Assembly: GCA_001972305.1 (NCBI GenBank)
Contig: BDDD01000019.1
Location: 781,382 to 845,381 of the forward strand
Source: Cephalotus follicularis
Lineage: Eukaryota; Streptophyta; Magnoliopsida; Oxalidales; Cephalotaceae
Length of the DNA stretch: 64,000 nt
Reading direction: 5' to 3'
Of this stretch, positions 3,521 to 56,697 are shown piece after piece; the stretch's first letter is position 1, and each line of letters starts with the position of its first letter. Position numbers and translations under genes: made by a program. The notes under the pieces were generated by a model. That model was not told where the DNA came from, did not search any database, and saw only the letters and a list, made by a program, of their open reading frames with translations.

Positions 3521-3661
3521 AAACAGTCTACTGTTGAACCCAACAGTCGACTGCTGAGGACAAACAGTCGACTACTCAATGTAAACAGCCGACTGTTAAG
3601 TGCAAACAGTCGATTGCTCAATGTAAACAGCCGGCTATTCTTATGAACAACAGACTGCTAA
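3521..3661 (+). repeat. TCGA-core motif cluster 2 of the Gypsy A LTR, 21-bp period
   Basis: Copies of ACAGTCGACTGYT start at 3523, 3543, 3564, 3585, 3606 and 3627, with a degenerate one near 3650. The steps are 20, 21, 21, 21 and 21 bp. The core is the 10-bp palindrome CAGTCGACTG. Decayed copies read CAGTCTACTG, CAGCCGACTG and CAGTCGATTG. Confidence 0.85.
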
Positions 3662-13082: not shown

Positions 13083-13845
13083 TGAAAAGTATATCAGTCA
13101 CGTTATGAACTGACAGAGTAACGTGCAAGAAGGAAGGAATTAGGATCCTTGCAGGCGCCTTGAGACACGGGTAGGAGACGTGTTGATCATGCATAATGGC
13201 CTCCTGACCTGCATGACTGAGCAAGGAGGAAGAACATGACAAGTGTGGGTGTGCATGCAACCTGCAAAAGAAAACATGAGAAGAAACAAAGTGAAAATGC
13301 AGAATTCACTGGAAAAGAGGGAGAGAACACGAGAGTGTTCATTGAATACAGGGAGAAAGAGGGTGGGGGAGCCATCTGCATAAGAACAACCCCCTCCCCA
13401 CCTCTCTCTCTCGTTTAAACACCAAAAGAAAGGAAGAAGAGGAAACCAGTGAGTGGGAGAAAGAGAGAGCCACCGTTGTTGAGCTTGATTGGAGCTAGAG
13501 ACTTGGAGCTCGTGGATTGCAGCTGCTGAGCGGATCTTGGATCTGCTGTGGCTGAAATCTTGGAACACAAAGAGGTGGACTTACAAGGTTTCTAACTTGG
13601 AACCAGAGGTAGGGGAAAGTGATGATTCTTATACATGCATTTTGAGTTTAGGATAATGAATGCCATTGGTGAATTGCATGTTAATGGATGAATTGTAACC
13701 TCTGGACTTGTTGTGATGACTACTGTGATGTATGGAGTGAACATGCATGTGCAAATTACATGAATATTTGAACTGGTTTATGTAATGGATGATTTGGTTA
13801 ATAACCTGGTGTGTTAAAACTGTAGAAAGGACGTTCTGGACTGAA

Positions 13846-13930
13846 TAGACGTCGACGTCTATCTAAAGACGTCGATGTCCTCGTGTGTGGATGTGAAAGA
13901 CATCGATGTTTGATTAAAAACATTGACGCA
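13846..13930 (+). repeat. TCGA-core motif cluster 2 of solo LTR G
   Basis: Copies of GACRTCGAYGTC start at 13848, 13868, 13899 and 13919; steps 20, 31 and 20 bp, near two, three and two helical turns. Confidence 0.8.
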
Positions 13931-14150
13931 TTTTCTGGGTATTCCTATAACAGTAGTGCTTACTGCAGATGGTGATTTGGTCACTCGTGGTTACGTCTTT
14001 ATTTAGGGATTGATGTTCTGGTTACATATCCTGATAACCAGTAGCATGTCTTACGCCTTGAGAGGGTGAGTTTCACTTATATGAGGGTTTAGGGGCCGGA
14101 TTCTTCCCCCTGGAATCAAGATTTGCGAACTGATACCTCCTGGTATGATA

Positions 14151-14272
14151 AAGACATCGATGTCTTTGGAAAAGCATCGACGTCTTTGGTCCAAAAATGC
14201 TTGGGAATAACTGTACGAGGGGTTGATGCCTTAGGGTAAGGACGTCCATGCCCTGGGAATAAGCATCAACGC
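14151..14272 (+). repeat. TCGA-core motif cluster 3 of solo LTR G
   Basis: Copies at 14153, 14173, about 14219, 14241 and 14262; steps 20, 46, 22 and 21 bp. Several have lost the CpG (GCATCAACGCC). Confidence 0.7.
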
Positions 14273-17741: not shown

Positions 17742-17925
17742 CTGTTCTGTTGCCCAGAACAGTCGACTGCCTTGTGAAATAGTCGACTGTTTTGCCTTGC
17801 ACAGTCGACTGGACCCCTGTCACACTCGACTGGATTCAACCTAGTTTGAGTAGTCGGCTGCCTATGCCACACAGTTGACTGCCACCTTTGAGTAGTTGAC
17901 TGGATCTTGATACAGTCGACTGGTT
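17742..17925 (+). repeat. TCGA-core motif cluster of solo LTR H with hairpin cap
   Basis: CTGTTCTG and CAGAACAG (17742-17749, 17755-17762) form a perfect 8-bp stem, and its right arm runs into the first motif. Copies of AGTCGACTG then start at 17761, 17781, 17803, 17824, 17852, 17873, 17894 and 17914; steps 20, 22, 21, 28, 21, 21 and 20 bp. Confidence 0.85.
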
Positions 17926-20256: not shown

Positions 20257-21198
20257 GCGCGGTGTCAGGAATGTGACACACGCCTGTTAGAACAGGGCAG
20301 TGGAGCCAAATGGTTTTCCTTGCAAGCTAAGTGTCCGACGACGTGTCAATCATGCAAGGAAACGTTACCAGCTGTTGATAATGCCAGACCAATGAGCTTT
20401 GCATGTCTCTTTTCACCTGCAACCTGCAAAACACAGCAGAAAAGGGTAAGAGAAAACAAAGAGAGAATGCATGCATGAGGGAGAGAGAATTGTGCATTAA
20501 AAGTTAAACCAACTGAGGAATGAAAGGCACGAGATTGAGCACTTATATCAGCTCATACTTGAGCTATTTGAGAGTTGAAAAACACTGAGGAAGAGGAGGA
20601 CTAGCTGGACAGTTGCTGGGAAGTGCTAGAGGTTACATGTTAATGTTTGAAGAGTTCAAGTGGTTGAAGCTTTGATTCCAGGTAAGTTACAATTCGAAGC
20701 TCACTTACTGTGATTAAGATGGTTATGTAAACATGTTGATGTCAATGATATACCTACTGTTGAATATGCAAATCAATAGTTGAATCGTAAAAGTTAATTG
20801 GAAAATGGAGAAGTGATTTAAATGGGATTAGAGGGTTAGAAATTAATTATTAAGCTTCTGATTCAATTCCTTGATGTTGTCATGGTTAGATAACTAGTTT
20901 AACGTACTGGATTTGTATCTAAAACCTCAAAGCATGCAATTATGTAGATTAATTCTGTAATTTTGGAAGATTGAAGGAGAGTGAAGAACTTTTGGACATA
21001 GAGTGAGAAATCAACTCGATTTGATGTCGGGACTGCTTCTAAGGTAGGGGTTTTTGACATGTTTTTGAACATATAACGTGTATAATGTGTAGTGATGTTC
21101 AATACTTGATTGCATGTTGAATTGGATTGAGATTGGGTTGATTTTATGCATCCCTTGTTTTGGTGTTGCTCTTGGAATTCGAAAAAACGCCAGAAGCG

Positions 21199-21337
21199 CT
21201 GACGCTTTAGTTCAGACGGTCGACGCTTTGGTGCAAAAATGGCATATTAAGGCTTAGAATATGGACGCTTAAGTTGTGTGGTGTCGACGCTTAGTCATAA
21301 TTCGTCGACGCTCACACAGAAACTGTCGACGCTTTAG
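21199..21337 (+). repeat. TCGA-core motif cluster 2 of the Gypsy B 5' LTR
   Basis: The GACGCT word lies at 21201, 21222, 21264, 21286, 21307 and 21328; steps 21, 42, 22, 21 and 21 bp. Best copies read GTCGACGCTT. Confidence 0.85.
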
Positions 21338-21598
21338 AACAGTAAATGTAGAAATGTGTAAACTGATCGATCGAATTGTTTGTGGTTGCAATTATCCTTG
21401 ATCTGCTATATTGTAACTATTAGTACTGTTATTTAATGAAATTACTACTGTTATATATACATATTCAAGGATTTTACCAACTTAATGCTTAAAGCATAAT
21501 TAATGATTTTCAATAACGGTTTTCTTATGGAAAATCTTAATGTCATACAAACTGCCATATTTACATTTATAGATTAATTACATGCTTTATCTTCCTAC

Positions 21599-21623
21599 TT
21601 AGCCAAGTGAGGACAACAGCTAA
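21599..21623 (+). other. conserved LTR stem-loop, Gypsy B 5' LTR
   Basis: TTAGC and GCTAA pair; the loop has AAGTGAGGAC. The 3' LTR copy (28815-28839) has TTAGC with GTTAA, which keeps pairing through G-U in RNA. Confidence 0.5.
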
Positions 21624-21963
21624 CCCCTAAAATTTCAGATTAAGCGAAGACGTACGGGAGGTGCTGTTGGAGCTTTTGGGAGAGTTGCTTTTTCTATTAA
21701 GGTTGTTATTCTTATGTTGTACTGTAATTGTATTGAACGGTTCACACTCCATGTTACTGTTGTACTTTCTTTATGTATGAGGATATTGCCGGATAGTACA
21801 TGCATGTTGTATGGGCTGTGTGCAGATGGCTTATGTTTTATAATCCAGATATGAATGCTTCCGCTTATTTATGAAATGTTAATGAAATGCTGGATTATAT
21901 GTATTTCTGATATCACCATATATGCTTGTCTCTAAAAGAATTGAAAGGAGGGGTGTGACAGCG

Positions 21964-21974
21964 TGGTATCAGAG
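21964..21974 (+). other. primer binding site of Gypsy B (initiator tRNA-Met)
   Basis: TGGTATCAGAG lies 3 nt after the 5' LTR. Confidence 0.9.
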
Positions 21975-22064
21975 AATATTCCATATATGCTAGCTGGGAT
22001 AAGTTTCTCGGAAATTAAGTGAAATTGTTTCCTAATGATTATGTCATTCCATATAGGAAACTGA

Positions 22065-23160
22065 ATGGACCTACGAAGAGGCAGAAGAGGAAGGCGTAGA
22101 GCCGCCGAAGGAGTCAATGCACAGCCAGTGCACGAACATGATCCGCCAGCGAATGAAGGAGTGAATGTTCCTCCAACGCATGACGAGAGGAGTAATTTTG
22201 ACCGCATGGATGATCTCTTTCAACAACAGATGCAAGCTAATACGGCGAACATGGAACAGATTCGGCAAATGTACGAGGCTAACCGGGCCTATCATCAGGC
22301 TCGTGAAGCTTGTCATACTGGTGGATTTGGCCGAGATCTCGAACGGTTCATGAGACAGAATCCTCTGACATTCAACGGTGAGCTGAATGCTAATGTGGCC
22401 GAATAGTGGATTAGAGATCTGGAGAAAATATTTGCTGCCTTGTAGTGTACTGATGAGCAGAAACTTAACTTTGTTGTATACCGCTTATGGGGCGAAGCTA
22501 CTTATTGGTGGGAAAGGACTGAAGCAAAATGGGAATCCCGTGGACTTGATAGGACTTGGGACAGATTTCAGTCTGAATTCCTTGAAACTTATGTGCCACA
22601 GATAGAACGTGACCGGAGGGAGACCGAACTGATGGAGTTACGTCAAGGGGACATGACGGTAGCTCAGTACCAGACCATATTTGTGGAGCTAGCAATACAT
22701 ACACCTTATTTGTGGAGGGTGAATCGTGAATGATCCGAAGGTTTCTGAAAGGCCTTCGACCTGACATTAGATCTAAACTGTTGATGTTGCAGCTAACCTC
22801 TTTTGTAGATGTTGCTGAGAGGGCGATGATTTTGGAAGCATATGAGAATGAGAGAAGAGCGGAACTGACTCGTACTAATCAACCGAGGGGCGTATAGTCA
22901 CAGGGGCAGGGGAGTAATAATCCTACTAAGTCAACAAAGTCTGAGAACAGAGGTCAAGGGAGTTCTCGACGCAGAAATTCATGATCAAGGACTCCTAATC
23001 GAAGCGGTCAACAGAATGCGGGTGGATGTACATTTTGTGGTCGTCAGAATCATGATGAGACTAAATGCTGGAAGAAGATGGGAAAGTGCTTGAGGTGTGG
23101 TTCACAAGATCACATGCTGAACAGTTGTCCTATGATGAGGGATCAAGCACACGGCCAACA
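22065..23160 (+). pseudogene. Gypsy B gag (broken)
   Basis: Gag is the particle protein. The ATG at 22065 opens a basic start (MDLRRGRRGRRR). A retrotransposon gag core follows (YWWERTEAKWES, AQYQTIFVELA), ending in two zinc knuckles: CTFCGRQNHDETKC and CLRCGSQDHMLNSC (about 23028-23133). Breaks: TAG at 22404 and 22443, a one-base frameshift near 22707, TGA at 22727, TAG at 22895 and TGA at 22982. After the frameshift the frame is the same as in pol, so gag and pol were one continuous frame in the active ancestor. Confidence 0.9.
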
Positions 23161-25603
23161 AGGAAGTGTTGGTGCAAGTGGTAGTGTTGCGACTTCTCAA
23201 CCGCAGAAGGACACCGGGAAAGGGATTGTGAAAGGTAGGGTCTACACCTTATCTAAAGATGATGTGCCTGAATCTACTACTGTTGTAGGAGGTACTATCT
23301 ATATAACTGGCATACTAGTTCATGTATTGATTGACCCTGGTGCGACACATTCATTCATTGCATCTGAATTTGCTCGCAATTTGCATGGTATTACTTCTAG
23401 ATTACCTTATGTATTGGAGGTGAGTACTCCTGCTGGTACTTGTCTTCTATCTGACACTATAATGAAAGATTGTGAGATTGTGGTAGCTGGGATTCAGTTA
23501 TCTGCTGACTTGATAGTGTTACCTATCCGAGACTTCGCTGTAATCTTGGGGATCGACTGGCTATATATTCATCATGCTTGTGTTGATTGCTATAACAAGA
23601 TGATGACCTTTTATCTTTAAGATGGGACTGAGTGCAAGTTTATCTGGGAGAAGAATGTTTCTACTCCGATCATTTCATATAATCGAGCACAGAACTATCT
23701 TAAGCAGGGATGCAAAGGCTATTTGGCGTATGTGATTGATCATACGAAAGGTACGCCTAGTATTGAACAACTGCCTGTTGTATGTGAATTTCCTGATGTA
23801 TTTCCAGATGAACTCACATCGTTGCCACTGGAGAGAGATATAGAGTTCAGCATCGAGCTATTGCCTGGGACTGCTCCTATATCCAAAGCACCGTACCGAA
23901 TGGCTCCTGCCGAACTGAAGCAGCTAAAGATTCAATTACAGGATTACCTTGACAAGGGCTTTATCAGACCGAATGTATCACCTTGGGGAGCACCGGTTCT
24001 TTTTGTGAAAAAGAAGGATGGATCGATGCGGTTATGCATTGATTACAGGCTGCTAAATCAGGTAACGGTGAAGAACAAGTATCCTCTGCCACATATTGAG
24101 GAGTTGTTCGACCAATTGCAAGGCTCAACTATATTCTCCAAACTGGACCTGAGAACAGGTTATCATCAGTTGAGGATCAGAGAGGGTGATGTGGAGAAGA
24201 CCGCATTTCGAACCAGATATGGGAATTACGAGTTTCTGATACTGTCGTTTGGTTTGACAAATGCTCCTGCAGCCTTTATGTGTCTAATGAACAAAGTGTT
24301 CCAACCGTACCTGGACCAGTTTGTCGTTATATTCCTAGACGACAACTTGATTTATTCAAAGAGCATTGAGGAACACATGCAGCATTTGAGGATTGTATTG
24401 CAGACACTACGGAAGGAACAGCTATACGCCAAATTCAGCAAGTGCGAATTTTGGCTGTATCATGTGACTTTCCTAGGTCACATTGTGTCGAGTCAAGGAT
24501 TGTCAGTGGATCCTTAGAAGATAGAAAGTATTGTTGATTGGCCCCAACCGAGAAACATTACTGAGGTTCGTAGTTTCTTGGGATTGGCTGGCTATTACCG
24601 AAGGTTCATCAAAGGGTTTTCGAAGCTTGCTGCACCTTTGACGCAGTTGACTCAGAAGAAGTCAAGCTTTGTGTGGAATGATTCCTATGAGGAAAGTTTC
24701 CAAGAGTTGAAGAGTCGGATGATTTCGGTTCCAGTGTTGGCATTACCGGAAGGCAATGAGGGTTTCACTGTCTATACCGATGCTTCTCTTAAAGGATTGG
24801 GATGAGTTCTTATGCAACATGGTAGGGTGATTGCGTACGCATCGAGGAAGTTAAAGCCGTACGAGGAAAATTATCCCGTACACGATCTTGAGCTGACAGC
24901 CATAGTGTTTGCTTTGCAGAAATGGAGGCACTACCTCTATGGTACTCAATTTGAGATCTTTACTGACCACAAAAGTTTAAAGTATTTGTTTTCCCAGAAG
25001 GAGCTCAACATGAGACAGAGGTGATGGGTGGAATTCTTTCTTGATTACAACTGCAACATTAAATACCACCCGGGAAAGGCGAATGTAGTGGCTGATGCGC
25101 TGAGTCACAAGGCAATGATTGCTGGAGTAATGGTTTCACAGTGGAAGCTATTGGAGGAATTTCAGAGATGGAATCCGTTCATGGTTTCCCGAGGAGTTAT
25201 TGTGGCAAGTCTGAGAGCACAACCGGAACTTCTAGAGCGTATTCTGACTGCTCAGTATAGTGGCACTGAGTTATGGAGTATTCGTGAGAACCTAGACACT
25301 GATTTTGAGTTCTCCATTCATACTGACGGCATCTTGAGGTTCCGAGGAAGGATATGTGTTCCGAATGACGAAAGCATTAGGAATGAGCTACTGCAACAAG
25401 CTCACAAGTCAAAATACAGTGTTCACCCTAGAAGTTCCAAGAAGTGGCATGACATGAAAAAGAACTACTGGTGGAGTGGCATGAAAATAGAGATTGCCGA
25501 ATACGTAGCAAGATGCTTGACCTGTCAGAGAGTGAAGGCTGAACAATAGAGACCTGCGGGACTGCTACAATCGCTACCAGTGGTTGAATGGAAATGAGAG
25601 CAT
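23161..25603 (+). pseudogene. Gypsy B protease, RT and RNase H (broken)
   Basis: The protease cuts the polyprotein; RT and RNase H copy the RNA. Protease: VLIDPGATHSF (about 23325), with catalytic Asp present. [36 protein letters not shown] and LSFGLTNAP are all visible; the catalytic motif reads FLDDNLIY, with Ile to Asn just after the two Asp. RNase [12 protein letters not shown] and [10 protein letters not shown] (about 24770-24990). Then comes the HHCC region (about 25395-25540). Stops lie at 23618 (TAA), 24515 (TAG), 24803 (TGA), 25022 (TGA), 25547 (TAG) and 25595 (TGA), all in one frame without further frameshift. Confidence 0.92.
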
Positions 25604-26653
25604 GTGACCATGGACTTCGTGTCAGGATTGCCGAGGTCACGGAATCAGCATGAAGCAGTGTGGGTTGTAGTGGGCAGACTCACTAAGTCTGCTCACTTCC
25701 TTCCAATGAACATGACGTATTCTATCGAGAAGCTTGCTCGATTGTATATCCGGGAGATTGTGAGATTGCATGGGGCGCCGGTCAGTATTGTTTGTGACCG
25801 AGATGCTAGATTTACTTCAAGGTTCTGGAAAAAGTTCCAAGCAGCAATGGGAACAAGCTTGAACTTTAGCACTGCATTCCACCCACAGACTGACAGACAG
25901 TCCGAGCGTACTATCCAGACTCTGGAGGATATGCTACGGACTTGCATGATTGATTTTGCTGGGGGTTGGGAGGATCATCTGGCACTGATTGAGTTCTCCT
26001 ACAACAACAGTTTTCACTCCAGCATTGGAATGGCTCCTTATGAAGCTTTGTATGGGAGGAAGTGCAGATCACCTAATTTCTGGGACGAGGTAGGTGAAAG
26101 ACAAGTGTTGGGACCAGAATTGGTGCAAGAGACTACTGATAAAGTGGAAATAATCAAGAAGAGACTGCTAGCTGCGCAAAGTCGGCAGAAGAGTTACGCC
26201 GATAGTAAGAGGAGGAAGCTAGAATTCGAGAAGGGGGATCATGTTTTCCTGAAGATCTCGCCTTTGAAAGGGATACACCGTTTTGACCTCAAAGGGAAGT
26301 TGGCTCCAAGGTATATTGGACCTTACGAGATACTGGAAAGAGTGGGGGAGTTAGCATATCAGATTGCACTACCGCCTAGTTTGTCGGATGTGCATAACGT
26401 ATTTCATGTCTCCATGTTACGGAAATACGTACCCGACCCATCTCACATATTGAGCTACGACCCTGGATTCATCCGTCCAAGATTGTCTTATGAAGAGAGG
26501 CCGACAAGGATAGTAGATCGAATGGAGAAGGTGCTGAGGAATAAGACTATTCCTATGGTAAAAGTGCTGTGGCGTTTTCACGGAGCAGATGAAGCTACGT
26601 GGGAGCGTGAGGACGAAATGATGGAGACATTTCCCCTCTTGTTCGGGATTTAA
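25604..26653 (+). CDS. Gypsy B integrase core and chromodomain, open for 349 codons
   Basis: This is the longest open segment of Gypsy B, in frame with RT but cut off from it by TGA at 25595, where related copies have a Trp codon. Seen: the DDE core ([28 protein letters not shown]), [19 protein letters not shown], the basic region, HNVFHVSMLRKY, and a C-terminal chromodomain (VKVLWRFHGADEATWERE, about 26555-26620). The chromodomain is the mark of chromoviruses. One odd residue: Asp-Arg-Gln where the family usually has Asp-Gly-Gln before SER. The segment would not be translated on its own without a start; it is kept as coding only because it is open. Confidence 0.85.
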   Translation: MTMDFVSGLPRSRNQHEAVWVVVGRLTKSAHFLPMNMTYSIEKLARLYIREIVRLHGAPVSIVCDRDARFTSRFWKKFQAAMGTSLNFSTAFHPQTDRQSERTIQTLEDMLRTCMIDFAGGWEDHLALIEFSYNNSFHSSIGMAPYEALYGRKCRSPNFWDEVGERQVLGPELVQETTDKVEIIKKRLLAAQSRQKSYADSKRRKLEFEKGDHVFLKISPLKGIHRFDLKGKLAPRYIGPYEILERVGELAYQIALPPSLSDVHNVFHVSMLRKYVPDPSHILSYDPGFIRPRLSYEERPTRIVDRMEKVLRNKTIPMVKVLWRFHGADEATWEREDEMMETFPLLFGI

Positions 26654-26681
26654 AGGCTAAATTCGAGGACAAATTTTCTTT

Positions 26682-26694
26682 AAGGAGGGGGGAA
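26682..26694 (+). other. polypurine tract of Gypsy B
   Basis: AAGGAGGGGGGAA lies directly before the 3' LTR. Confidence 0.9.
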
Positions 26695-26844
26695 TGTAAT
26701 AACCGCAATTTCGATTCATGTATTTTGCACCCAACGATGAATAAAATGTACTTTTTGAGATGTTATGTTGGTTACCTTTTTAATAGAATGAAGTTGGAAT
26801 AAAATTCTTAAATGGAAAACTAAAGAAATAATTTCTGGTGCTAA

Positions 26845-26967
26845 ACCGCCGACGCCTAACTCCTTACCATCGAAGCTTTGAGAACTGACACGTGTACAAA
26901 CGCGCAGTTGAAGGCTGAGTTATGATGCACAAACCGCCGAAGCCAGAGAGAAAACCGTCGACGCTTT
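26845..26967 (+). repeat. TCGA-core motif cluster 1 of the Gypsy B 3' LTR
   Basis: Aligns with 20134-20256. One copy now reads CCATCGAAGC where the 5' LTR has CCGTCGACGC. Confidence 0.8.
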
Positions 26968-27908
26968 GCGCGGTGTAAGGAATGTGACACACGCATGTTA
27001 GAACAGGGCAGTGGAGCCAAATGGTTTTCCTTGCAAGCTAAGTGTCAAACGACGTGTCAATCATGCAAGGAAACGTTACCAGCTGTTGATAATGCCAGAC
27101 CAAGGAGCTTTGCATGTCTCTTTTCACCTGCAACCTGCAAAACACAGTAGAAAAGGGTAAGAGAAAACAAAGAGAGAATGCATGCATGAGGGAGAGAGAA
27201 TTGTGCATTAAAAGTTAAACCAACTGAGGAATGAAAGCCACGAGATTGAGCACTTATATCAGCTCATACTTGAGCTATTTGAGAGTTGAAAAACACTGAG
27301 GAAGAGGAGGACTAGTTGGACAGTTGCTGGGAAGTGCTAGAGGTTACATGTTAATGTTTGAAGAGTTCAAGTGGTTGAAGCTTTGATTCCAGGTAAGTTA
27401 CAATTCGAAGCTCACTTACTGTGATTAAGATGGTTATGTAAACATGTTGATGTCAATGATATACCTACTGTTGAATATGCAAATCAGTAGTTGAATCGTA
27501 AAAGTTAATTGGAAAATGGAGAAGTGATTTAAATGGGATTAGAGGGTTAGAAATTAATTATTAAGCTTCTGATTCAATTCCTTGATGTTGTCATGGTTAG
27601 ATAACTAGTTTAACATACTGGATTCGTATCTAAAACCTGAAAGCATGCAATTATGTAGATTAATTCTGCAATTTAGGAAGATTGAAGGAGAGTGAAGAAC
27701 ATTTGGACATAGAGTGAGAAATCAACTAGATTTGATATCGGGACTGCTTCTAAGGTAGGGGTTTTTGACATGTTTTTGAACATATAACATGTATAATGTG
27801 TAGTGATGGTCAATACTTGATTGCATGTTGAATTGGATTGAGATTGGGTTGATTTTATGCATCCCCTGTTTTGATGTTGCTCCTGGAATTCGAAAAAACG
27901 CCAGAAGC

Positions 27909-28048
27909 GCAAACGCTTTAGTTCAGACAGTCAACGCTTTGGTGCAAAAATGGCATATTAAGGCTTAGAATATAGACGCTTAAGTTGTGTAGTGTCAACG
28001 CTTAGTCATAAAACGTCGACGCTCACACAGAAACTGTCAACGCTTTAG
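27909..28048 (+). repeat. TCGA-core motif cluster 2 of the Gypsy B 3' LTR, CpG-decayed
   Basis: Aligns with 21199-21337. Three of the four GTCGACGCT copies of the 5' LTR read GTCAACGCT here; the 21-bp spacing is unchanged. Confidence 0.85.
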
Positions 28049-29176
28049 AACAGTAAATGTAGAAATGTGTAAACTGATCGATAGAATTGTTTGTGGTTGC
28101 AATTATCCTTGATCTACTATATTGTAACTATTAATACTGTTATTTAATGAAATTACTACTGTTATATATACATATTCAAGGATTTTACCAACTTAATGCT
28201 TAAAGCATAATTAATGATTTTCAATAACGGTTTTCTTATGGAAAATCTTAATGTCATACAAACTGTCATTTTCCTCTTAATAGAGGCACTGTTACTGATT
28301 AGTTGCCCCAATAGAACCACTAACTGAACTGTTATGTTTTCTAAAAATGAAAACTACTATAATATTGCATATTATAGATATATGTAATATTGTTACTGAA
28401 TTGATTGTCTATGCTATTACCGTTAGTCGAGTGATAGGAGACATCACTGGCTACGGAGGTGGTCCTATGTGCCAGGAGTTGGCTAGAGTATCCACCCAAA
28501 CTGTCTGCAATGCAGAATGTGATTATTAAACTGCTCGCTAAAGCCGGTAGTAACTGACATGATCTATCATCTTCAGGAGTGTAGGGTGATAGATAGGTGG
28601 TGCACAGTTGGTTCTAGGAGTTAGCGACATGTGACACCCAAACCGCTGTACTGATTGATTGTACCCTTGTACGGTATTCTTGCATTGTACTGTCTATGGC
28701 CACTTGGCATGATTGTGTATATATTGGAATACTATATATATATATATGTCATTTCATTTAAACTATCATGCATATTTACATTTATAGATTCAATTACATG
28801 CTTTATCTTCCTACTTAGCCAAGTGAGGACAACAGTTAACCCCTGCAATTTCAGATTAAGCGAAGACGTACGGGAGGTGTTGTTGGAGCTTTTGGGAGAG
28901 TTGCTTTTTCTATTAAGGTTGTTATTCTTATGTTGTACTGTAATTGTATTGAACGGTTCACACTCCGTGTTACTGTTGTACTTTCTTTATGTATGAGGAT
29001 ATTGCCAGATAGTACATGCATGTAGTATGGGCTGCGTGCAGATGGCTTATGTTTTATAATCCAGATATGAATGCTTCCGCTTATTTATGAAATGTTAATG
29101 AAATGCCGGATTATATGTATTTCTGATATCACCATATATGCTTGTCTCTAACGGAATTGAAATGAGGGGTGTGACA

Positions 29177-30014: not shown

Positions 30015-30138
30015 ATGTCTGTTGACGATTTAGTCCCAATCCTTGTTTTGATGATAACATATTTGCATTTGACAAGTTTACTTGATGTGCAAGAAATTAC
30101 AAAGTTCAATACCAAGGCAAATACCATCTGCAGAAGAA

Positions 30139-30680
30139 GACATCGACTTTCAAGAAATGACATCGACGTCTGTACAGAAAGACATCGATCCCTTTCAAAT
30201 GACATCGACGTCTTTAGTTCCAGAAGTTACAAGATCAAATTATAATGAAGACATCGTCCTTCCAGTAATGACATTGACGTCCGTACAGAAAGACATCGAT
30301 CCCTTTCACAAAGACATCGACGTCTTTAGTGCTAGAAGCTACTGTTCAAATTTGCAATTGAAGACATCGATCCCTACATGCAAAGACATCGACGTCAGTA
30401 CAAAAGAAATCGACGCCTTTAGATAGACATCGACGCCTTTCTAGAGCTACCTGCATTTCCCAGAAAATACATCGACCCCTACAGAAAGAAGTCGATGTGA
30501 TGCTCAAAGTTTCAATACCTGGAGATTTCCCAGAAATGACATCGACGCCTTTAAAAAGACATCGACATCTTTTTAAATGACTTGACCCGGGAAACATGGA
30601 ACGGCTAGTTGGCGCACTCTCAACGGCTATCAACAGTGAAAGACATCGACGCCTTTATAAAAGACATCGACGTCTTTATG
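30139..30680 (+). repeat. TCGA-core motif array in the Copia S LTR, about 19 copies
   Basis: GACATCGACGYCTTT-like units start at 30139, 30159, 30181, 30201, 30250, 30270, 30292, 30313, 30363, 30385, 30406, 30426, 30468, 30488, 30538, 30558, 30579, 30642 and 30663. The steps are 20-22 bp, with gaps of 42, 49-50 and 63 bp. Many units carry GACGTC or ATCGAT palindromes. Confidence 0.9.
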
Positions 30681-30770
30681 TCAGCAGAGACAAAATTCAA
30701 AGATAGCAACTAACACATTTTTAAATCAAAAGCTTCTATGAATTATGCAACGGCTACAAATATTTTATGC

Positions 30771-30781
30771 CTATAAAAGGA
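30771..30781 (+). promoter_or_regulatory. probable TATA box of Copia S
   Basis: CCTATAAAAGG follows the motif array and precedes the probable transcribed part of the LTR. Called from sequence and position only. Confidence 0.6.
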
Positions 30782-31303
30782 AGACTGAAACCTCAGAAGA
30801 ACAACAATTCAGAATTATTCACATCAATTACACAACATCAAGAGAAATATCAAGTTCAAGCATTATAGTGTGTAAAATCTCAAAGTGCTCAATAGTTTTC
30901 TAAAAATCTTCTAAGCTCTATCCTTTGAGATTTTCTGAGTGTTTCACATTGTGAGCTGTATTATTCATATCAACCTATTTGAGAGGTTATTTTGTAAACA
31001 ATTTCAATTACTTGTAAAAGAGGAGAATCCTCTAAGGTCTTGAGGTCAAGGTCTTGTGATTGAGGTCAATCACAAAGTTGTGAGGTGTAACGATTTGCTT
31101 CCTTAATCAAATCGAGATAGTGGAAACTCAAGGAGCTCCCTTGGGAAAAGTGCACGTAGGCAAGAGTTAGCCGAACCACTCTAAATTCGAAGAAGTTTTT
31201 CTTTCCTTGACTCTTTACATTTAAACTTTTTTAAATTTCCGATATTTACTTCAATATTCAATTCACCCCCCTCTTGTATATTGCAAGAGTGTTATATTTC
31301 AGT

Positions 31304-31358: not shown

Positions 31359-32966
31359 ATGGAATTGAATATGTCAAACAAGGAAAGCATGTCCATCTCA
31401 AAGCCTCCATTATTCGATGGAAACAACTATAGTCATTGGAAGGCAAAGATGACTATATTCATTCAAGCTCTTGACTTCAACTTATGGGACATCATTATTG
31501 ACGGCCCGGGACTTCCTCACATCATCTCACAAGAAGGTATCAAAACCCTCAAACCGAGAAGCTCATATACGGATGATGATCGAAAGAAGGTACAATTAAA
31601 TGCTAAAGCAAAACATGTTATTATATGTGCCTTAAATTCATTTGAATTCAATAGAGTATGATCATGTGCTACCGCAAAAGAGACGTGGGATAGATTAGAG
31701 GTTACCTATGAAGGCACCAACCAAGTCAAGGATGCAAAAATAAATATGCTTGTAAGAGAATACGAAATGTTCTCTATGAAGGAAATTGAAAACATTTCCA
31801 GTATGTTTGTTAGATTTACAAATATTATTAATTCCTTACAATCTTTGAATAAATGCTACACTAATAGTGAGATGGTAAGGAAGATACTTAGGTGTCTACC
31901 CAAAAGTTGGATGCCTAAAATTACGGCTATAGAGGAAGCAAAAGACCTCAACACTTTGCCGCTTGAAGAACTTCTTGGATCACTCATGACACATGAAATG
32001 ACCATCAAAAATCATGAGGATGATGAAGAACAAGATAAAAAGAAAAAGAAAGTCATTGCATTCAAGTCTTCCACAACGGACACAAGTGAAGAAGATAGTG
32101 ATGATGAAATGGCTTTGATCACAAGAAGATTCAAAAAATATCTAGCGGAAAAAAAGTTTGGGAACAAACACTTCAAGAAGACATTCCCATGAAAATCCGA
32201 AACAAAGAAGGAAGAAATAGTTTGTTTCGAATGTAATAAACCCGGACATTACAAGAGTGAATGCCCAAGATTGAAGAAAGCAAAAGACACTATCAAAAAG
32301 AAGAAAGCTATGCTTGCTACATGGTCAGATAGTGATGAATCAAGTTCCAAAGAAGAAGAAGACCAAGAAGTAGCACAAATAGCATTGATGGCAATCAATG
32401 ATAGTGATCAAGATGAAGATGAAGATGAAGATGAGAATGAGGTAAGTGAACTTCTTGAATTACTTGAGAAATTTAGTTTAGAAAATAGTTCTCTTAAAAA
32501 GACCATTAAAGCTCTTAATAGAGAAAATGTTAGTCTAAAAAATGAATTAGAATGTTTATCTAATACGTCCTTTGATGATAAGACTATTTCTTTAGAAAAG
32601 GAAAATGGGACTTTAAAAATTGAAATTGATGCTCTTAAAAGGACTTTTTCAAAATTTTCAAATAGTAGTGAAAAACTTGATAAACTCTTAGGTATTCAAA
32701 GATGTGTTTTTAACAAGGCTGGCCTAGGTTATGATGAGATGAATAAGGATAATCAAAAGATCTCATCTAGCATGACTTGTAATTATTGCAATAGACATGG
32801 CCACACTACACACACTTGCTATTGCAAGAAAAATGACATGCATAAGAGAAATTTGTTATTGAATAATAAATTGTCGAAAGTAAGAACTATATGGGTTCCT
32901 AAAGGAACATTTTTTACTAACCCCCCCGGACCCAAAGCAACTTGGGTACCAAAGTCTTCAACATAA
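31359..32966 (+). pseudogene. Copia S gag, 535 codons with two TGA stops
   Basis: This is the particle protein. The ATG at 31359 starts a single frame to TAA at 32964, interrupted only by TGA at 31659 and about 32190. Order: gag N-terminus (PPLFDGNNYSHWKAKM), helical gag core, acidic and lysine-rich linker, zinc knuckle CFECNKPGHYKSEC (about 32224), a second acidic stretch, a long coiled coil (about 32440-32700), a second knuckle CNYCNRHGHTTHTC (about 32780-32820), and a WVPK-repeat tail. Both stops can be explained by a single C-to-T change from CGA, though that is inferred. Gag is otherwise fully retained, unlike pol. Confidence 0.88.
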
Positions 32967-32972
32967 ACTCTC

Positions 32973-33383
32973 TTGTTTTGTAGGTGTCACCAAAGAGAAA
33001 TCGTTGGTACCTCGATAGTGGATGTTCCAAGCATATGACGGGTAACAAACGTCAATTTATAACTTGGAAACCAAAAGACGGAGGAAACGTAACCTTTGGA
33101 GACAATACAAAAGGAAAAAAAACAACAATTGGTTGATTATGGTATATGTGTTAAGAATGTATCTATTAAATGTGATAATACTAGTAGTATTTGTCTTGCT
33201 AAGAACCCAGTCCATCATTCTAGAACAAAGCATATTGACATTAGATACCATTTCTTAAGAGAACATGTAGAAAGTGGTGACATTGTTTTAGAGTATATTC
33301 CCACCGAAAAACAAGTGGCGGATATTTTCACCAAACCCTTAGATGAGAATTCTTTTTCTAAGTTTAGAAGAGAACTAGGGTAA
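32973..33383 (+). pseudogene. Copia S pol scar: protease start joined to RNase H end
   Basis: Pol starts after gag in another frame with RNRWYLDSGCSKHMTG (about 32996-33043), the beginning of a copia protease with its catalytic Asp. Near 33117-33125, in an A-rich run, the sequence jumps to the last part of RNase H (SIKCDNTSSICLAKNPVHH and ADIFTKPLDENSF), ending at 33383. Integrase, RT and most of RNase H are gone. TTGTTTTGTAG before GTGTC (about 32972-32987) resembles a 3' splice site at the gag-pol boundary; this is only a resemblance. Confidence 0.85.
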
Positions 33384-33499
33384 TGTGAACTTGAATGATG
33401 TTATGTGAATGATTGTTTTATTTGAATGCATATTTGCTGTGATGATTTTTTTTTTGATATTGTTCTATTTTTGCTTGATTTTCTGTTCTATTTTACAAA

Positions 33500-33790
33500 A
33501 ACGTCGACTTCTTTTCTGGAAATTCTGTGCTTTACAAAAACACGTCGACTTCTTTTCTGCAAAACCTTATGTCTTATGAAAATCACGTCGATCCCTTTTG
33601 AAAAAAATCGATCTCTTTGCGTTTCCCTGAAACACGTCGACTACTTTTGAATCACGTCGATGCTTTTCAAAACGCAACATTTTCTGAATCGATTTCTTCA
33701 GTTCATTTAAGGAACACGTCGACTTCTTTTAAATCACGTCGACGTCTTTAACTCAGAAATCGACTTCTTCCTAAAAACGTCGATCTCATG
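33500..33790 (+). repeat. second TCGA-core array of Copia S, upstream of ORF3
   Basis: CACGTCGACTTCTTTT-like units place the T of TCGA at 33504, 33545, 33588, 33608, 33637, 33657, 33689, 33719, 33739, 33760 and 33780. The steps (41, 43, 20, 29, 20, 32, 30, 20, 21 and 20) are close to multiples of 10.4 bp. The unit differs from that in the LTR of the same element. No gene. Confidence 0.85.
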
Positions 33791-33990
33791 CTCATTTCTC
33801 ACTTTTACCCTACTCTGTGTCTTTTAGAAAATTTCTACTCTTTTATTTTTCTTTCAAAAATCATTCTATCTGTTCGAAAACAATCTTATAATTACTTTTC
33901 CAACTTCAAAAACCGTTTTCGTCTTGTCCAATTCGTCTGTTTTTATCACTCTTTGTGTCTCTCTTTTGTACTCACCAAGTGTTTGATAAT

Positions 33991-35304
33991 ATGCCGAGAA
34001 CAAAATGAACTGCCAAAAAGAAGGCTGCTTCTCCCTATCAGCCTAAGAAATCTGCTAAAAAGCAGAGATTTGAACTTAGAGAGTCTTCCCCCGACCCTTC
34101 TCTATCGGATTCCGAATCCGAAGAGCAAGTCCCATTGAGAAATGTGGTTTTTGTTGACAAAAGAGTTATGGGAGGCAGAAATATCGACTTGGATTTCTGT
34201 TCTTCTGAATTTTCTTTTGTTTCCTGGGTAGATGATCTCCATCTCCTTCCTCTTGTACAAATTCAAGACCCTTTTTACATAAAATTGGTCAAGGAATTTT
34301 ACATGCACCTTCGGATTGTTTCAAGCCCAAATGAGGAATTTGCACTCTCCTCTTCTGTTAAAGGGCAGAGAATTTATCTAGATGCTAGGATTCTAGCCTC
34401 TATTCTATACATTCCACATACCGGTTTATACGTTTTTGAACACAAAAAATGGCCGGAGGTTGAGGGCTTTCACCCTAACCAAATTTTGTCCATTCTCTAC
34501 CCAAATGATCCAAATGTTCATCCCAATATGGCACTGACTACCAATAGATTGTCAGTAGATCATAGGCTACTCCACCATCTTATTGTACACCAATTTCTAC
34601 CCACCGGTGGAGGGTATGCAACGTTGTCTAGGATGCAAGTTTTTCTCATGTGGTGTATCCTCTCCAAAATTGAATTTTGTTTTCCCCTTCTCACGCTCAA
34701 GACTATGGTAAGAGCTTTCTCTCAAAAGAAATCTGTCCTACCCTTCGGCTCTATCCTTACCAAAGTCTTTCTCCATCATCAAATTCGGCTAGAAGGAGAA
34801 ATTACTACGAAATTGAAGAAAGAGGACACTTACAACAAGAGCACTATGAATCGGATGGGGTGGAAAAAGCAAGAAGGAATTTGGACCTATTGCCCCAAAG
34901 TTGACCAAGTGCAAAGGATTGCAAGGGAAGAGCAAGAAGAGAACCCTCCTTGGGAAGCTCACGAAGAATCTGCACCTGCTCAGGCTCAAGCTCAAGGAAC
35001 CTCTTCCTCTACTGATCTTGACAGGATAATGGAGTTTATGCGCTCAAACTTTGATTCTATGCAAGCCTCGCTTGAAGAGAAATTTGAGCAAGTCAACACG
35101 CGGCTCACTAGCTTTGAAAAATATCATGTAACGATTCGTTCCGACTTCGATAACATTGATGACACCATCTACTACGACCTAAAAGTATTAAGGAGACGTC
35201 TCAAGACAATGGAACGAAAACTAGCCGTTTCCAAGACTATTGATGGTTGCGAAGAGACTTCGGGCGATGATTCCGATTTCGATGCCCCTCCTGCTGCTGC
35301 CTGA
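33991..35304 (+). pseudogene. Copia S ORF3 (extra gene after pol), 437 codons with one early TGA
   Basis: The ATG at 33991 is in frame with the whole ORF; the sixth codon is TGA (34006), after which the frame is open to TGA at 35302. The start region is rich in Lys (TAKKKAA, KKSAKKQRF), like a nuclear localisation signal. Residues about 50-300 resemble the 'putative plant transposon protein' domain found in plant repeats (KEFYMHLRIVSS, VKGQRIYLDARILASIL). Then come an Ala-Gln stretch, a coiled coil (about residues 345-415) and an acidic end. I see no signal peptide. In SIRE-type elements this position is called envelope-like, but nothing here looks like a membrane fusion protein. Function unknown. 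Confidence 0.75.
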
Positions 35305-35324
35305 TCTTGTTGTTGTTTTTGTTT

Positions 35325-35639
35325 TTATTTTGTAAACACTTTCAATTACTTGTAAAAGAGGAGAATCCTCTAAGGTCTTGAGGTCAAGGTCTTGTGATTA
35401 AGGTCAATCACGAAGTTGTAAGGTGTAACGAATTGCTGCCTTAATCAATTCGAGATAGTGGAAACTCAAGGAGCTCCCTTGGGAAAAGTGGACGTAGGCA
35501 AGAGTTAGCCGAACCACTCTAAATTCAGAGAAGTTTTTCTCTCCTTGACTCTTTACATTTAAAGTTTTTTAAATTTCCGATATTTACTTCAATATTCAAT
35601 TCACCCCCCTCTTGTATATTGCAAGAGTGTTATATTTCA
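35325..35639 (+). repeat. Copia S 3' LTR, truncated to its last 315 bp
   Basis: It matches 30987-31301. The first 967 bp of the LTR, including the array and TATA box, are missing; the ORF3 stop lies only about 20 bp before the join. The left target-site duplication is at the 5' LTR, so the loss is internal. Confidence 0.9.
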
Positions 35640-38555: not shown

Positions 38556-38898
38556 TGTAATACCCTACTTGTTCATAAATATATTTTACGGATTTATATG
38601 TGTTTTTGGGCTTTTAATTTTGTTTAATTTTAAAAGTCCGGTTGCCCTATGATTTGGGTTTATGTGAATTGAGCTGACTGTTACCAGTCCGAAATTTTGG
38701 GTATGTTATGCTATGTTGGGTTTGGGTAAAGCAAACTTATAATTTGATATATTATGTATATGCTCAGATAAGTAATGTTATGTATGATATGACCCTGTGA
38801 CGACTCCCGCCGTCCGGGGGTGTTACATATATGCTCTGATAGTTAATGTTACGTATGATATGACCCTGTGACGACTCCCGCCGTCCGGGGGTGTTACA
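38556..38898 (+). repeat. Gypsy C 5' LTR, reduced to 343 bp by internal deletion
   Basis: Compared with the 3' LTR (2222 bp), 1879 bp are missing between GGGTTTGGGT (near 38728) and AAGCAAACTT. The TCGA array and the stem-loops are lost. Both termini and a 72-bp duplication of the LTR end (38755-38826 and 38827-38898) remain. Confidence 0.9.
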
Positions 38899-38903
38899 GA
38901 ATA

Positions 38904-38914
38904 TGGTATCAGAG
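38904..38914 (+). other. primer binding site of Gypsy C (initiator tRNA-Met)
   Basis: TGGTATCAGAG lies 5 nt after the 5' LTR. Confidence 0.9.
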
Positions 38915-43158: not shown

Positions 43159-43384
43159 CTGTTCTGTCCCCCAGAACAGTCGGCTGTCTCTGTGGACAGT
43201 CGGCTGGAATGCTTGGGTAGCCGACTGCCACATGAATGCATTCGACTACCTTGGTTGTGTAGTCGACTGGAGGGATGAACATAGTCGACTGCCTGCACTT
43301 TTAATTGTGTAGTCGACTGAACCATATGAATAGTCGACTGCCAGGCCTCCCCAGTCGACTGGAGTCCTGTTTTAGTCGACTGTT
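43159..43384 (+). repeat. TCGA-core motif array of Gypsy C with hairpin cap
   Basis: CTGTTCTG and CAGAACAG (43159-43166, 43172-43179) form a perfect stem with a 5-nt loop. AGTCGACTG-like copies start at 43178, 43198, 43219, 43240, 43261, 43283, 43311, 43332, 43353 and 43374; steps 20, 21, 21, 21, 22, 28, 21, 21 and 21 bp. Same design as in solo LTR H. Confidence 0.9.
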
Positions 43385-43850: not shown

Positions 43851-45283
43851 AGGTTTTCAGGAGCAGCGGGGGAAAGTGTGATTGAGTGATGACCACCCTA
43901 TGTGTTGGATCCTTAGGAGAGTGATCCTTATGTTATGATTAGTGGTCAGAAACATGGATTATTATGTTTTAAGTTTTTAAATTGGAACTGAATTATGTTT
44001 TGAGTTTTCCGCAACCACGTAATATGTTAAATGGTTAAGTTTTAATGTTTTGATAAGACTGCCACGTTTTGGCTGTTATTGGCTAATGAAGCAAACTTAT
44101 AATTTGATATATTATGTATATGCTCAGATAAGTAATGTTATGTATGATATGACCCTGTGACGACTCCCGCCGTCCGGGGGTGTTACATATATGCTCTGAT
44201 AGTTAATGTTACGTATGATATGACCCTGTGATGACTCCCGCCGTCCGGGGGTGTTACATAGTCAGTTTGACAAATCCCCTCATAGATTATTTTGTTGACC
44301 AGCCAGTAGGAGGAGATCCTCCAGACCAGTTGTAGAAGGCTAAGCAAATGTAGTTTTTGTGCTCGGCACCTCGGGAAGCTAGCTCGGGTATCTAGCATGC
44401 ATTGCATTGGGTATTCTTTTGGGTTCCTCTACTTCTTTTTGTTGTGGAGTGGCCGAGAGCTTATGTTTTGTATATGAGATGTTAAAGCAAAAGATACTAT
44501 GTTAATTCTTTGGATGAATAGAAAGAAAGCAGAGGTTGTTTCTAGTCCGAGGACTAGCATGTCATGTAAAAGTACTTTGATGAAAGAAATAGATCTTTTA
44601 GTCCGTGGACTAGTTTTATATAATGATATGTTAGTAGTTTTCTGTTGTAAGCCTTGTGTTTGAAGTTACGTCCGAGGAGCCAAGGAGTCCTCGGATGGCT
44701 TTAGCGTTATATGTGTGAGGCTCGTTAAGGAGTCCTCGGATGTGTGGTCAGTGGAAACAAAGAGAGAGGTCTGTGGCCGACCTCAAGGTTTCATGCGACA
44801 GATTATTATAATAGTTACTAGCACTACAGTGTTTAAGTTAAGTTAAGCTGTGCGTTTTGATGCTCAGCCAAGGTCTATATTTTTTGTAGAAGCGCTAGAG
44901 AATGGTAGAGGAGAAAAGGCCGTGGATAGAGTGTGTCCTCGAGATATAAAGCATACCTTGGTGTTTATGTGATCACGAGTGGAGCACGTGAGTGTTCTTC
45001 TAGGATGTTAATTGATGCGGGCGTTTTGGAGTATGTTTAGATGTATGCTGGTGACTTATTGAAACGGGGAGTTTGAGTCCTCGGTTCTTTTAAGTCCCCT
45101 GCCTTTAAATTCCGCGTCAGTTGCACGCTCAACCCAGACTTCCTCATCGGGCCTTTGCGTAACAAATCCTTGGAGCGATCATTGTAGCTTTGTAGGTGCA
45201 GTTTAAGCCGAGAAGGTTGTTGGCAGGAGCGCCATCCCCGGTAGGGCACGTCTCCCAGAGCAGAGCGGGAACGGGTTCTGTCA

Positions 45284-53272: not shown

Positions 53273-54828
53273 GACACATGTGACTGGAGTGTAATAACTC
53301 TGCCCGCGGCGGCTGAGTACACTCTAGTCGCTCGACGGTAGTATCCATAGCACGTACTTGGTGGTAGTATAACTAGAATGCAAAAGTCTAGTGTAGCTTG
53401 AAGACTATGACTATCTAGTCAGAGGGAACAGATGGGATAACCATCGCCTAGCTTCCTATCTAGAGTCATGAGGTCACTCTAATAGGAATAATCTAGTACA
53501 ATCAATCCATCAATCAATACTTATGTAAATAGACAATAAACAACGATTGTCTAACCAAACGGAACAGATGGTTATGTATATAACCATTGTCTAGCTTCTT
53601 GACTAAAGATTGCTAACGCACCTATGGATATAGTCAATCAATCAATCGGTGATCAATGCGACTACACTATTGTTCAACACGAAGCATCGGTCGTCCAATA
53701 GGTGGACTGACTAACTAGAGAGAGCATATATATATATCTACAATCGTTGTCATGCATACCTGATTAGATATTGCTAGAATGTCTACGGTATTAATAAGTC
53801 AATCAATCACTAACATGACTACGCAATTGTTCAATAAGATGGGTTGGTCGATGGTTGGACCATAGTCCAAGCACTCAGTCAATCAATCCAACGATCAATG
53901 ATTTAGTTGGTTAATCATGTCCTCGAAAGTTCTATACTATAAATTGATCTACCAAAAGATTAAGATTTTTCTAACTAAGATATAAAATTGTTTAAAAAGG
54001 CTTGAGTTATCTCAAGTATGATCAAGTGAAGTGGTCATTTGAAAACAAGTTAGAAAACAACAGTTTTTGAGGAAAAGTATCAGACCATTGGACCAATAGT
54101 CGACTGGCATGTCGCATTAGTCGATTGACATATACAAGTCAACTAACCTGGGCTCACCAATCGACTAATGGTCGACTGGGCCATGAAAATATGCAGAAAA
54201 CAATAGATTTCCCATATGCTCAATCCGATCCAATTTGGGGTTTTAGCCATCTTTCTAAAATCCGTTTGAAACAAAAGTTTAGGGGTATAATCTAAACATG
54301 TCTAAGGGTGACATATCAAGACATCAATTCATTTGGACTGTCCGAAGGTCCGCAAATCAGAATAGGGCCAAAGTAGATCTAAAAACCCATTTCCATCGAT
54401 TTTCACATTCATCAGAATTCAGTCAATTTCAATCAATACAATCACCAAATAATACTTTATATGTACATAATTTTAAGTATTTTAGGTAGAGATTATCTAA
54501 CTAATAACCAGAAGCTTTTGATGTTGAATATATCTAGAAATTAGATGTTAGACTCAAGTAAAACTTCCAATCAGTTGCAAGCTTCATGGGGTGCTGTCAT
54601 GGTGCAAAACCAAGCTCAATCCACTCCTAATCATGGGATGTCAGTGGCGGCATCAAGAGAGGGAGAGGGTTGTGTGTTATATGTGTATGTGGTAAGGAGA
54701 AGAGAAGAAAAGGAGAGGGGAAAAGGGAGAGGGGGATCGGGTTGAAAGCGAGATGGGAGGAGATGTTTGTGGTATGTGTGATGCTATGTAGAGAAAGCAA
54801 GAGGAAGAAGAGAGAGGGGCTGGCCTAT

Positions 54829-55109: not shown

Positions 55110-56697
55110 CTAAGTCTCCTAACTATCTATGGATTGACCTAATAGATACACAGTTAGGTATAGCTACATATGGATCATCCTAAAAGATACACAACTATAT
55201 ATTGGAGTTAACCAGTTAACAAAAGCCGTTTAGGTTGTTAACTGTCTAATTAGAAGGAATAGTTGAACGAAGTTCAACGCCTGGTATGCCTGACTAGAAG
55301 TCAATAAGGTCACCCTAAATTGTTCAATTAATCAATCAATCAATCAATCGGTCAGTCAATACCATGACTTAGTCAATCAGTTGGTTGGTACAATCGATCG
55401 GTCAATTGGTTTTGGTTCGAGTGAAATGGTATAGAAAACAGTTCAGCATTAAGTGAGGATTGATCCAGGATTGAGTCCCATTAAAAACAATGTTTAAACA
55501 GAGCATGCGGACCTTGGAAAGGTCCTAGAATATGTCGAGTGAAAAACATCCAGTGAAAGCCATGAAACAAACTTCACAAGAAGAAACAAGGGAATAATGT
55601 CAATGCTTTCATAGAAAACGTCGATGTTTTCCATTGTTTCCTTCAAGTCTGTGGGAAGTACATAGAAAAGCGTCGATTCTTTTTGGAGAAAGCATTGACG
55701 TATTTCTATAAACTTGACTCCAGTGGCTGTATTCAGTATAAGCATGATGCTTTAAAGGGGAAGGCATTAATACTCTAGAAGGCGTCGATGCTCAAACAAC
55801 AAGCATCGATGGGTTTTGGCAGTTTGTTTTTTAGGAAAAGAAGGATGTAAGACATCGATGCACATGGTAAAGATGTCGATACAATTTATGGAATAATTGC
55901 ATCGATGCTTTTTCCAAAACACTGATGTGATTTCATGGAATAAAGCCATAAATGCAATGCGCAGTAATGACGTCGATGCTTATGGGAAAAGCGTCGACAC
56001 AATTCTGTTGGAATAAACTCAAAATTATGAATTTCCATCGAGTTCAATTTGTAAGTCCATTTTAAAGCAGTGTAAGTGTTAGGTAAGTTTAAAAACATCT
56101 TCCTAACACTTCTAAATAAGTTTTAGGCCATTGAATCCATGGATTCAAGAATTAGGTTAAAAACCCCTAAATTTTTAACAAAAAATCCAATTTTCATTTC
56201 AATTTACAATCAATCAGTTCCAAACAATCAATTTACGCAATATATAAAGCAATAACCCTGTATCCACGGTGCATTTGAGGTAAAGAAATCTTACCAATAT
56301 GTTTTGAAGCTTTAACTCCGTGGAAATCAGTAAAAAGAAGGAAGAACTCAAGTTCTTCACTTCAATTGGTTAAGTAGGCTTCAATCAAGTTGTGGCAATC
56401 AATTGATTAGAAAAACAACACAGAATTAAGGTGAGAATGAAAATTAGAAGTAAGGTGAATAACAAGTGAAGATGAGGAGATGGTATTTTGTGGAAACGAT
56501 TTAGTGTATCTCGGTGCATAGTAGGGTATATGTTCTCAAACTAGAATTAAAACCAGTAAACAATACATAAACATATAAATGGGTATGAAATAGTTTGGTC
56601 AATTAGTTTACAATGCAGTCAATTACAGAATTAGTAAAGTAATAAACGTGAAATGCTAAAATGCAGTAAATAGACCCATCTGGTATGGGGCCTTACA
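55110..56697 (-). repeat. Gypsy N LTR, part, minus strand
   Basis: On the minus strand it starts at 56697 with TGTAAGGCCCCATACC, the start form of the gypsy LTRs here. It is cut at 55110 by Gypsy M, so the rest lies left of the window. It carries a TCAA-type microsatellite (about 55322-55348), one copy of the repeat type of the Gypsy M LTR (55245-55380) and a TCGA cluster (55596-56000). No gene. Confidence 0.6.
55596..56000 (-). repeat. TCGA-core motif cluster of the Gypsy N LTR
   Basis: GCGTCGATGCTT / GCATCGATGC-like copies form close pairs: 55600 and 55621, 55673 and 55695, 55785 and 55806, 55855 and 55876, 55973 and 55995. The step within each pair is 21-22 bp. A single copy is at 55902. 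Confidence 0.75.

What the first reader, a model, noticed from the sequence alone, without database searches (positions are those of the whole stretch)
43159..43384. Short TCGA-core motif arrays with about 21-bp phasing in many unrelated LTR families
Seen directly: AGTCGACTG-type motifs in Gypsy C are spaced 20, 21, 21, 21, 22, 28, 21, 21, 21; in solo LTR H (17761-17914) 20, 22, 21, 28, 21, 21, 20; in the Gypsy A LTR (3523-3627) 20, 21, 21, 21, 21; in Gypsy B (21201-21328) 21, 42, 22, 21, 21; in LTR G (13848-13919) 20, 31, 20; in Copia S (30139-30663) mostly 20-22 with 42 and 63. Most spacings are near whole multiples of the 10.4-10.5 bp helical turn, with the sequence between motifs poorly conserved. 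Exceptions exist (28, 46, 49-50 and 67). That pattern is expected if a protein, or a row of dimers, binds one face of the DNA; a 21-nt small-RNA register is an alternative. I know of no description of such arrays shared by gypsy and copia LTRs, but cannot search.
Basis: seen in the sequence. Interest (0 to 1): 0.92.

Follow-up and report, generated by a model that had tools for sequence, protein, structure and literature searches.

The report
Phased palindrome boxes in plant retrotransposons
Unrelated jumping genes in a pitcher-plant genome carry rows of short mirror-image DNA words, mostly two turns of the double helix apart, probably docking sites for a protein that some of these elements encode, which would give a testable job to a gene family of unknown function.

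Summary
In the window, TCGA recurs at 20-22 bp (34 pairs; background about 1.4 per distance). Across the 1.58 Gb genome (Cephalotus follicularis by protein matches), AGTCGACTG pairs occur 44,196 times at 21 bp and 219 times at 26 bp. Longer spacings also keep helical phase. The units are family-specific palindromes in gypsy and copia LTRs. RNA folding shows nothing beyond the boxes themselves.

Best reading: the "env-like" proteins bind the boxes, VANC-like, and gypsy elements hitchhike. No binding data exist. Rival: host factors.

The parts
43178..43381 (.). Gypsy C LTR array, 10 CAGTCGACTG-type boxes (class C), spacings 20,21,21,21,22,28,21,21,21
17761..17921 (.). LTR H array, 8 class C boxes
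3525..3615 (.). Gypsy A LTR array, 5 class C boxes
54098..54177 (.). class C boxes near the 45514-47039/51753-53272 LTR pair
21218..21331 (.). Gypsy B 5' LTR array, GTCGACGCT boxes (called mostly class B: 3 of 5 sites)
27929..28042 (.). same array in the Gypsy B 3' LTR; 3 of 4 central TCGA read TCAA
13045..13080 (.). LTR G, two GACATCGACGTC boxes (class A)
13844..14185 (.). LTR G, further class A boxes (13852, 13872, 13903, 14157, 14177)
30136..30676 (.). Copia S 5' LTR U3 array, 16 class A boxes (AAAGACRTCGAYGTCTTT), upstream of a TATA-like CCTATAAAAG at about 30770
30017..31301 (+). Copia S 5' LTR (start approximate), followed by TGGTATCAGAG, a primer-binding site (label recalled)
31662..32966 (+). 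Copia gag region (PF14223, zinc knuckle)
33502..33785 (.). second array of the same element, 11 RTCGAY boxes, between the end of pol and the extra ORF
34009..35304 (+). extra ORF, PF20167 (Transposase_32), in the position of the Sirevirus env-like gene; the upstream in-frame ATG is followed by a stop in this copy
35325..35639 (+). 3' part of a Copia S LTR (96% to 30987-31301); the box-bearing part of this LTR is missing
55783..55999 (.). further array, RTCGAY boxes with GC..GC arms

Best explanation
The arrays are rows of binding sites for sequence-specific, probably dimeric DNA-binding proteins; the palindromes are laid out so that bound proteins sit on one face of the helix. The binder of each box class is most likely the PF20167 ('env-like', extra-ORF) protein encoded by a Sirevirus-type copia element that carries the same class both in its LTR U3 and directly upstream of that ORF. 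The protein would bind its own LTR and its own promoter, in the manner of VANC proteins of VANDAL transposons, to open or activate the element. Gypsy families that carry the boxes without the gene would be hitchhikers. Shown: arrays, phasing, sharing across families, architecture, co-variation of box class with protein clade. Inferred: that PF20167 binds the boxes, and that the result is anti-silencing or activation.
Confidence: 0.55

Rival explanations
1. The boxes bind host transcription factors (one or several paralogues), used as enhancers by copia and gypsy LTRs and by the promoter of the extra ORF; PF20167 has another function. This is close to the suggestion in the 2010 Sirevirus paper.
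For: Boxes lie upstream of a TATA-like box in the U3 of Copia S; carriers without PF20167 exist (queries of all three clades match only one place in the window). PMC2829016 reports mostly stress-related plant factor sites for its boxes and names no single binder.
Against: Why LTR and ORF promoter should change box class together, in step with the clade of the encoded protein, is not explained. Gypsy A and B have 81% identical pol and a shared 627-bp LTR part (80%) but different box classes.
Confidence: 0.3
2. The arrays act through RNA: neighbouring palindromes fold into hairpins that feed small-RNA silencing or shield the RNA.
For: The Gypsy C array folds strongly (z -6.8). Small RNAs map to palindrome-rich regions of maize Sirevirus LTRs (PMC5311732 and PMC10760457, passages).
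Against: With boxes held fixed and spacers shuffled, all 9 arrays tested lie within an absolute z of 2 (range -1.91 to 1.76; four lie between -1 and -2; 60 shuffles each). Hairpins do not need a fixed word shared by unrelated families nor helical phasing.
Confidence: 0.08
3. Neutral minisatellite expansion: the boxes are remains of a 21-bp repeat spread by slippage and recombination between LTRs.
For: Local higher-order duplication in Copia S (111-bp units). Some arrays are homologous across loci (L133 to Copia S; L142 to L148; H to L145; the two PF-B LTRs).
Against: Steps of 28-32, 41-43 and 48-53 bp, matches in both orientations, no extended homology among most families, and falling conservation next to the boxes in classes B and C.
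Confidence: 0.04

Closest known systems
Repeated-motif (RM) boxes of Sirevirus copia retrotransposons (Bousios et al. 2010, PMC2829016; passages plus sections 9, 19, 20 read)
   Same: Palindromic boxes in high copy in the LTR upstream of the TATA box and again upstream of the env-like gene; box differs between elements; two listed boxes have a TCGA centre (Vitis CGGTCGACCG, Tnd-1 ACAATCGATTGT).
   Different: There the core is CGG-CCG in 12 of 13, and the boxes are called Sirevirus-specific in a comparison of copia elements; no phasing or cognate protein is given in the parts read. Here the cores are TCGA or TYAA, phased to the helix, also found in gypsy LTRs, and matched to PF20167 clades.
VANC anti-silencing proteins and their motif arrays in VANDAL DNA transposons (PMC5735166, passages read; PDB 9lnj found by fold search)
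   Same: Short motif arrays in non-coding parts of an element, motif changing with the element's own DNA-binding protein; weak fold resemblance of PF20167 to VANC21.
   Different: DNA transposons, not LTR retrotransposons; the VANC21 motif is 9 bp, arrayed in one orientation; no sequence homology seen here.
Transposase_32 (PF20167) / Athila-type extra ORFs (PMC11728184, passages read)
   Same: PF20167 in a 3' extra ORF of a sunflower Athila element, predicted nuclear, function unknown.
   Different: Here in copia elements, with a phased box array directly upstream.
Palindrome clusters of maize Sirevirus LTRs as small-RNA hot spots (Bousios et al. 2016, not held, known only through PMC5311732 and PMC10760457 passages)
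   Same: Palindromes cluster in the regulatory part of the LTR; [quoted passage not shown]
   Different: Read there as RNA structure; box word CACCGGACNNNGTCCGGTG.

Membership tests
Sirevirus RM boxes | palindromic box in at least eight copies per element | tested here: met
   16 LTR + 11 promoter boxes in the window's Copia S; 11-12 LTR boxes in PF-C; 13-14 in one PF-B LTR
Sirevirus RM boxes | boxes in the LTR and upstream of the env-like gene | tested here: met
   one or two elements of each of three clades
Sirevirus RM boxes | CGG-CCG core (not in Tnd-1) | tested here: not met
   cores RTCGAY, GTYRAC, AGYCGACT
Sirevirus (host element) | several AGGGGGAG tracts before the 3' LTR, the last joined to AT/TG | tested here: met
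   L170 (PF-B) 673, 722, 1005 and L128 (PF-C) 903, 942, 1181, the last of each with ATTG; three tracts without it in L187; none in L169; not testable in the window copy (PF-A), whose 3' LTR is truncated
Sirevirus (host element) | primer-binding site TATCAGAGC | tested here: inconclusive
   Copia S 31307 and L122 2308 read TATCAGAGA (8 of 9); Gypsy B has the same word at 21967, so it does not discriminate
Sirevirus (host element) | PF-A element belongs to the same lineage as PF-B and PF-C elements | tested here: inconclusive
   gag 57.5% identical over 120 residues between window PF-A and PF-C; LTR start 74% over 78 bp to a PF-B LTR; no tree was built
VANC-type anti-silencing system | motif arrays in non-coding parts of the element that encodes the binder | tested here: inconclusive
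   arrays met; that PF20167 is the binder is inferred
VANC-type anti-silencing system | protein homologous to VANC | tested here: inconclusive
VANC-type anti-silencing system | protein binds motif and removes methylation | not testable with these tools
   needs binding and methylation data
env-like protein (membrane type) | transmembrane helix | tested here: inconclusive
   highest 19-residue hydropathy 1.26-1.46 in two PF-B and three PF-C proteins, 1.7-1.8 in two PF-A proteins, inside the PF20167 domain

The most novel reading that the evidence does not exclude
The long-mysterious env-like genes of Sireviruses (and perhaps Athila) encode VANC-fold, sequence-specific anti-silencing DNA-binding proteins. 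Each clade recognises its own helically phased palindrome array, and unrelated gypsy elements have repeatedly evolved arrays of another element's class to hitchhike on its protein, making a genome-wide economy of self-activation and theft.
Probability: 0.4. Interest if true: 0.93.

Novelty: new variant of a known kind. Interest (0 to 1): 0.82.

Why it matters
The role of extra 'env-like' ORFs in plant LTR retrotransposons is called unclear or controversial in the passages read here (PMC7264820; PMC2829016). If they bind the phased boxes, the question becomes a single in vitro experiment, Sirevirus RM boxes get a binder, anti-silencing would extend from DNA transposons to LTR retrotransposons, and sharing of box classes could explain how unrelated families rise together in one genome.

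Tried and rejected
Of three protein searches, the listed rows that bear a name (120 rows shown each, of 368, 124 and 360) are all Cephalotus, so other plants could not be compared. L152 first looked like a PF20167 clade with class C boxes; it is a PF-B copy cut by a nested class C LTR and was dropped. Plain CpG decay as the source of the TYAA class was rejected. PF-A structure model too poor; its VIA list has no VANC21 row. Solved-structure sequence searches listed 4 and 5 chains at E 1 and 10, none of them VANC21. Paper searches. In their listings and the passages I opened I saw no description of phased boxes, boxes shared with gypsy LTRs or a binder, but most subscription papers are not held and Bousios 2016 could not be read. 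Distances over 26 bp could not be counted genome-wide; a count for the GTCAACGC class did not complete.

Full report
OBSERVATION. The motifs and spacings given for Gypsy C, LTR H, LTR G and, with small differences, Gypsy A, Gypsy B and Copia S are in the sequence. TCGA recurs at 20, 21 and 22 bp 14, 16 and 4 times against about 1.4 per distance. Twenty 10-kb stretches of contigs C1-C12 of the same genome, at positions picked without looking, repeat the result (15, 21, 9 against 3.2). The genome is Cephalotus follicularis or very near it, by protein matches, and holds 1.58 Gb. In it AGTCGACTG pairs occur 44,196 times at 21 bp (control 147) and 219 times at 26 bp (control 0). That ratio, about 200 to 1, is the strongest single number; 26 bp is the only out-of-phase distance counted genome-wide.

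ANATOMY OF THE BOXES. The cores belong to longer palindromes: class C, CAGTCGACTG; class A, AAAGACRTCGAYGTCTTT; class B, RCGTYAACGY, with a related GCGTCGACGC form. By matrices from the three carrier elements, Gypsy A, Gypsy C, H, 54100 and L145 are called mostly C; LTR G, 55785 and L129, L130, L133, L142, L148 mostly A; Gypsy B (3 of 5), L131 and L135 mostly B; L132 and L137 split. Of 151 adjacent spacings of 12-80 bp from 23 arrays (L133, L145, L148 and B2_prom dropped as homologous; the partly homologous B_LTR and B2_LTR both kept), 94 lie at 19-22 bp, and the 55 above 24 bp cluster near 30, 42, 51, 63 and 71 bp (R 0.53 at 10.4 bp, similar from 10.0 to 11). Out-of-phase steps (13, 26, 45-46, 56, 59) are few. 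I read this as one-face binding.

ARCHITECTURE. In the window's Copia S element a second array (33502-33785) lies between the end of pol and an extra ORF with a PF20167 domain. The same layout was found at 12 of 12 fetched PF-A loci (6-11 RTCGAY boxes), 18 of 20 PF-B loci (4-10 GTYRAC; L162 none, L152 nested insertion) and 4 of 4 PF-C loci (3-6 class C boxes), against sample densities per 320 bp of 0.35, 0.38 and 0.045. In the 320-bp intervals tested, no class C box (9 of 10 letters) was seen at any PF-A locus or at any PF-B locus other than L152. Loci of one clade are related copies, so these are three groups, not 36 independent cases. Elements of PF-B and PF-C show Sirevirus marks: three AGGGGGAG tracts, the last with AT/TG, in L170 and L128, though not in L169. 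The PF-A element is linked to them by gag (57.5% over 120 residues to PF-C) and the LTR start.

CO-VARIATION. Matrices from LTR boxes assign 33 of 36 promoter boxes to their own element; with equal-size matrices 32.6 on average, minimum 30, against a shuffled mean of 14.0 and a largest value of 32 in 1000. In reverse 57 of 58 LTR boxes go to their own class. LTR and promoter arrays of one element share no homology beyond stretches of about 31-56 bp that span boxes. In class B the centre is mostly TYAA although most flanking CGs persist, so it is a variant, not plain decay. The simplest reading is one recognition factor per element lineage; linked descent alone would not keep two separate arrays in step unless something reads both. 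That this factor is the encoded PF20167 protein is inference.

RIVALS. RNA: the Gypsy C array folds strongly (z -6.8), but with boxes fixed and spacers shuffled all 9 arrays tested lie within an absolute z of 2. Host factor: not excluded; it would need separate factors per class and an unexplained match to the protein clade. Slippage alone: disfavoured by variable steps and lack of extended homology, with local duplication as a contributor.

PRIOR ART. Bousios et al. 2010 (PMC2829016; [quoted passage not shown] VANC motif arrays are known from VANDAL transposons (PMC5735166, passages). PF20167 in an Athila extra ORF is noted in PMC11728184 (passages). What I did not find in the searches listed under Tried and rejected is helical phasing, sharing with gypsy LTRs, or the protein link.

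VERDICT. A real, strong, genome-wide pattern; a new variant of Sirevirus RM boxes, with a testable proposal that the env-like PF20167 proteins are VANC-like binders of these boxes and that gypsy families hitchhike on them.

Noticed in passing
window 31662-35639: The Copia S copy lacks most of pol (gag is followed by only the end of RNase H, by eye), and its 3' LTR has lost the box-bearing U3 part.
   Followed up: partly
window 2597-4760 against 19984-29176: Gypsy A and Gypsy B share 81% identical pol and an 80% identical 627-bp LTR stretch, but their U3 arrays belong to different box classes: a natural swap.
   Followed up: partly
window 21218-21331 and 27929-28042: Between two LTRs that are 97% identical, 3 of 4 box centres read TCAA instead of TCGA in one LTR, as expected from methylated CpG decay; the 3' LTR also has about 500 extra bases.
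   Followed up: no
window 38729-38905 and 44089-44260: A 71-bp GC-rich unit duplicated in tandem near the end of both Gypsy C LTR copies, 93-94% alike; the 5' copy lacks about 1.9 kb, the array included.
   Followed up: no
L152 (C32:193373-195321): A PF-B element whose promoter array is replaced by a nested class C LTR insertion.
   Followed up: yes
L124 1560-1580: One class A box (AAGACATCGACGTCTTT) sits inside the class C promoter array of a PF-C element.
   Followed up: no
whole genome G000: PF20167 is very numerous: 13,073, 14,936 and 11,933 first-look candidates in three searches; the overlap between them is not known.
   Followed up: no
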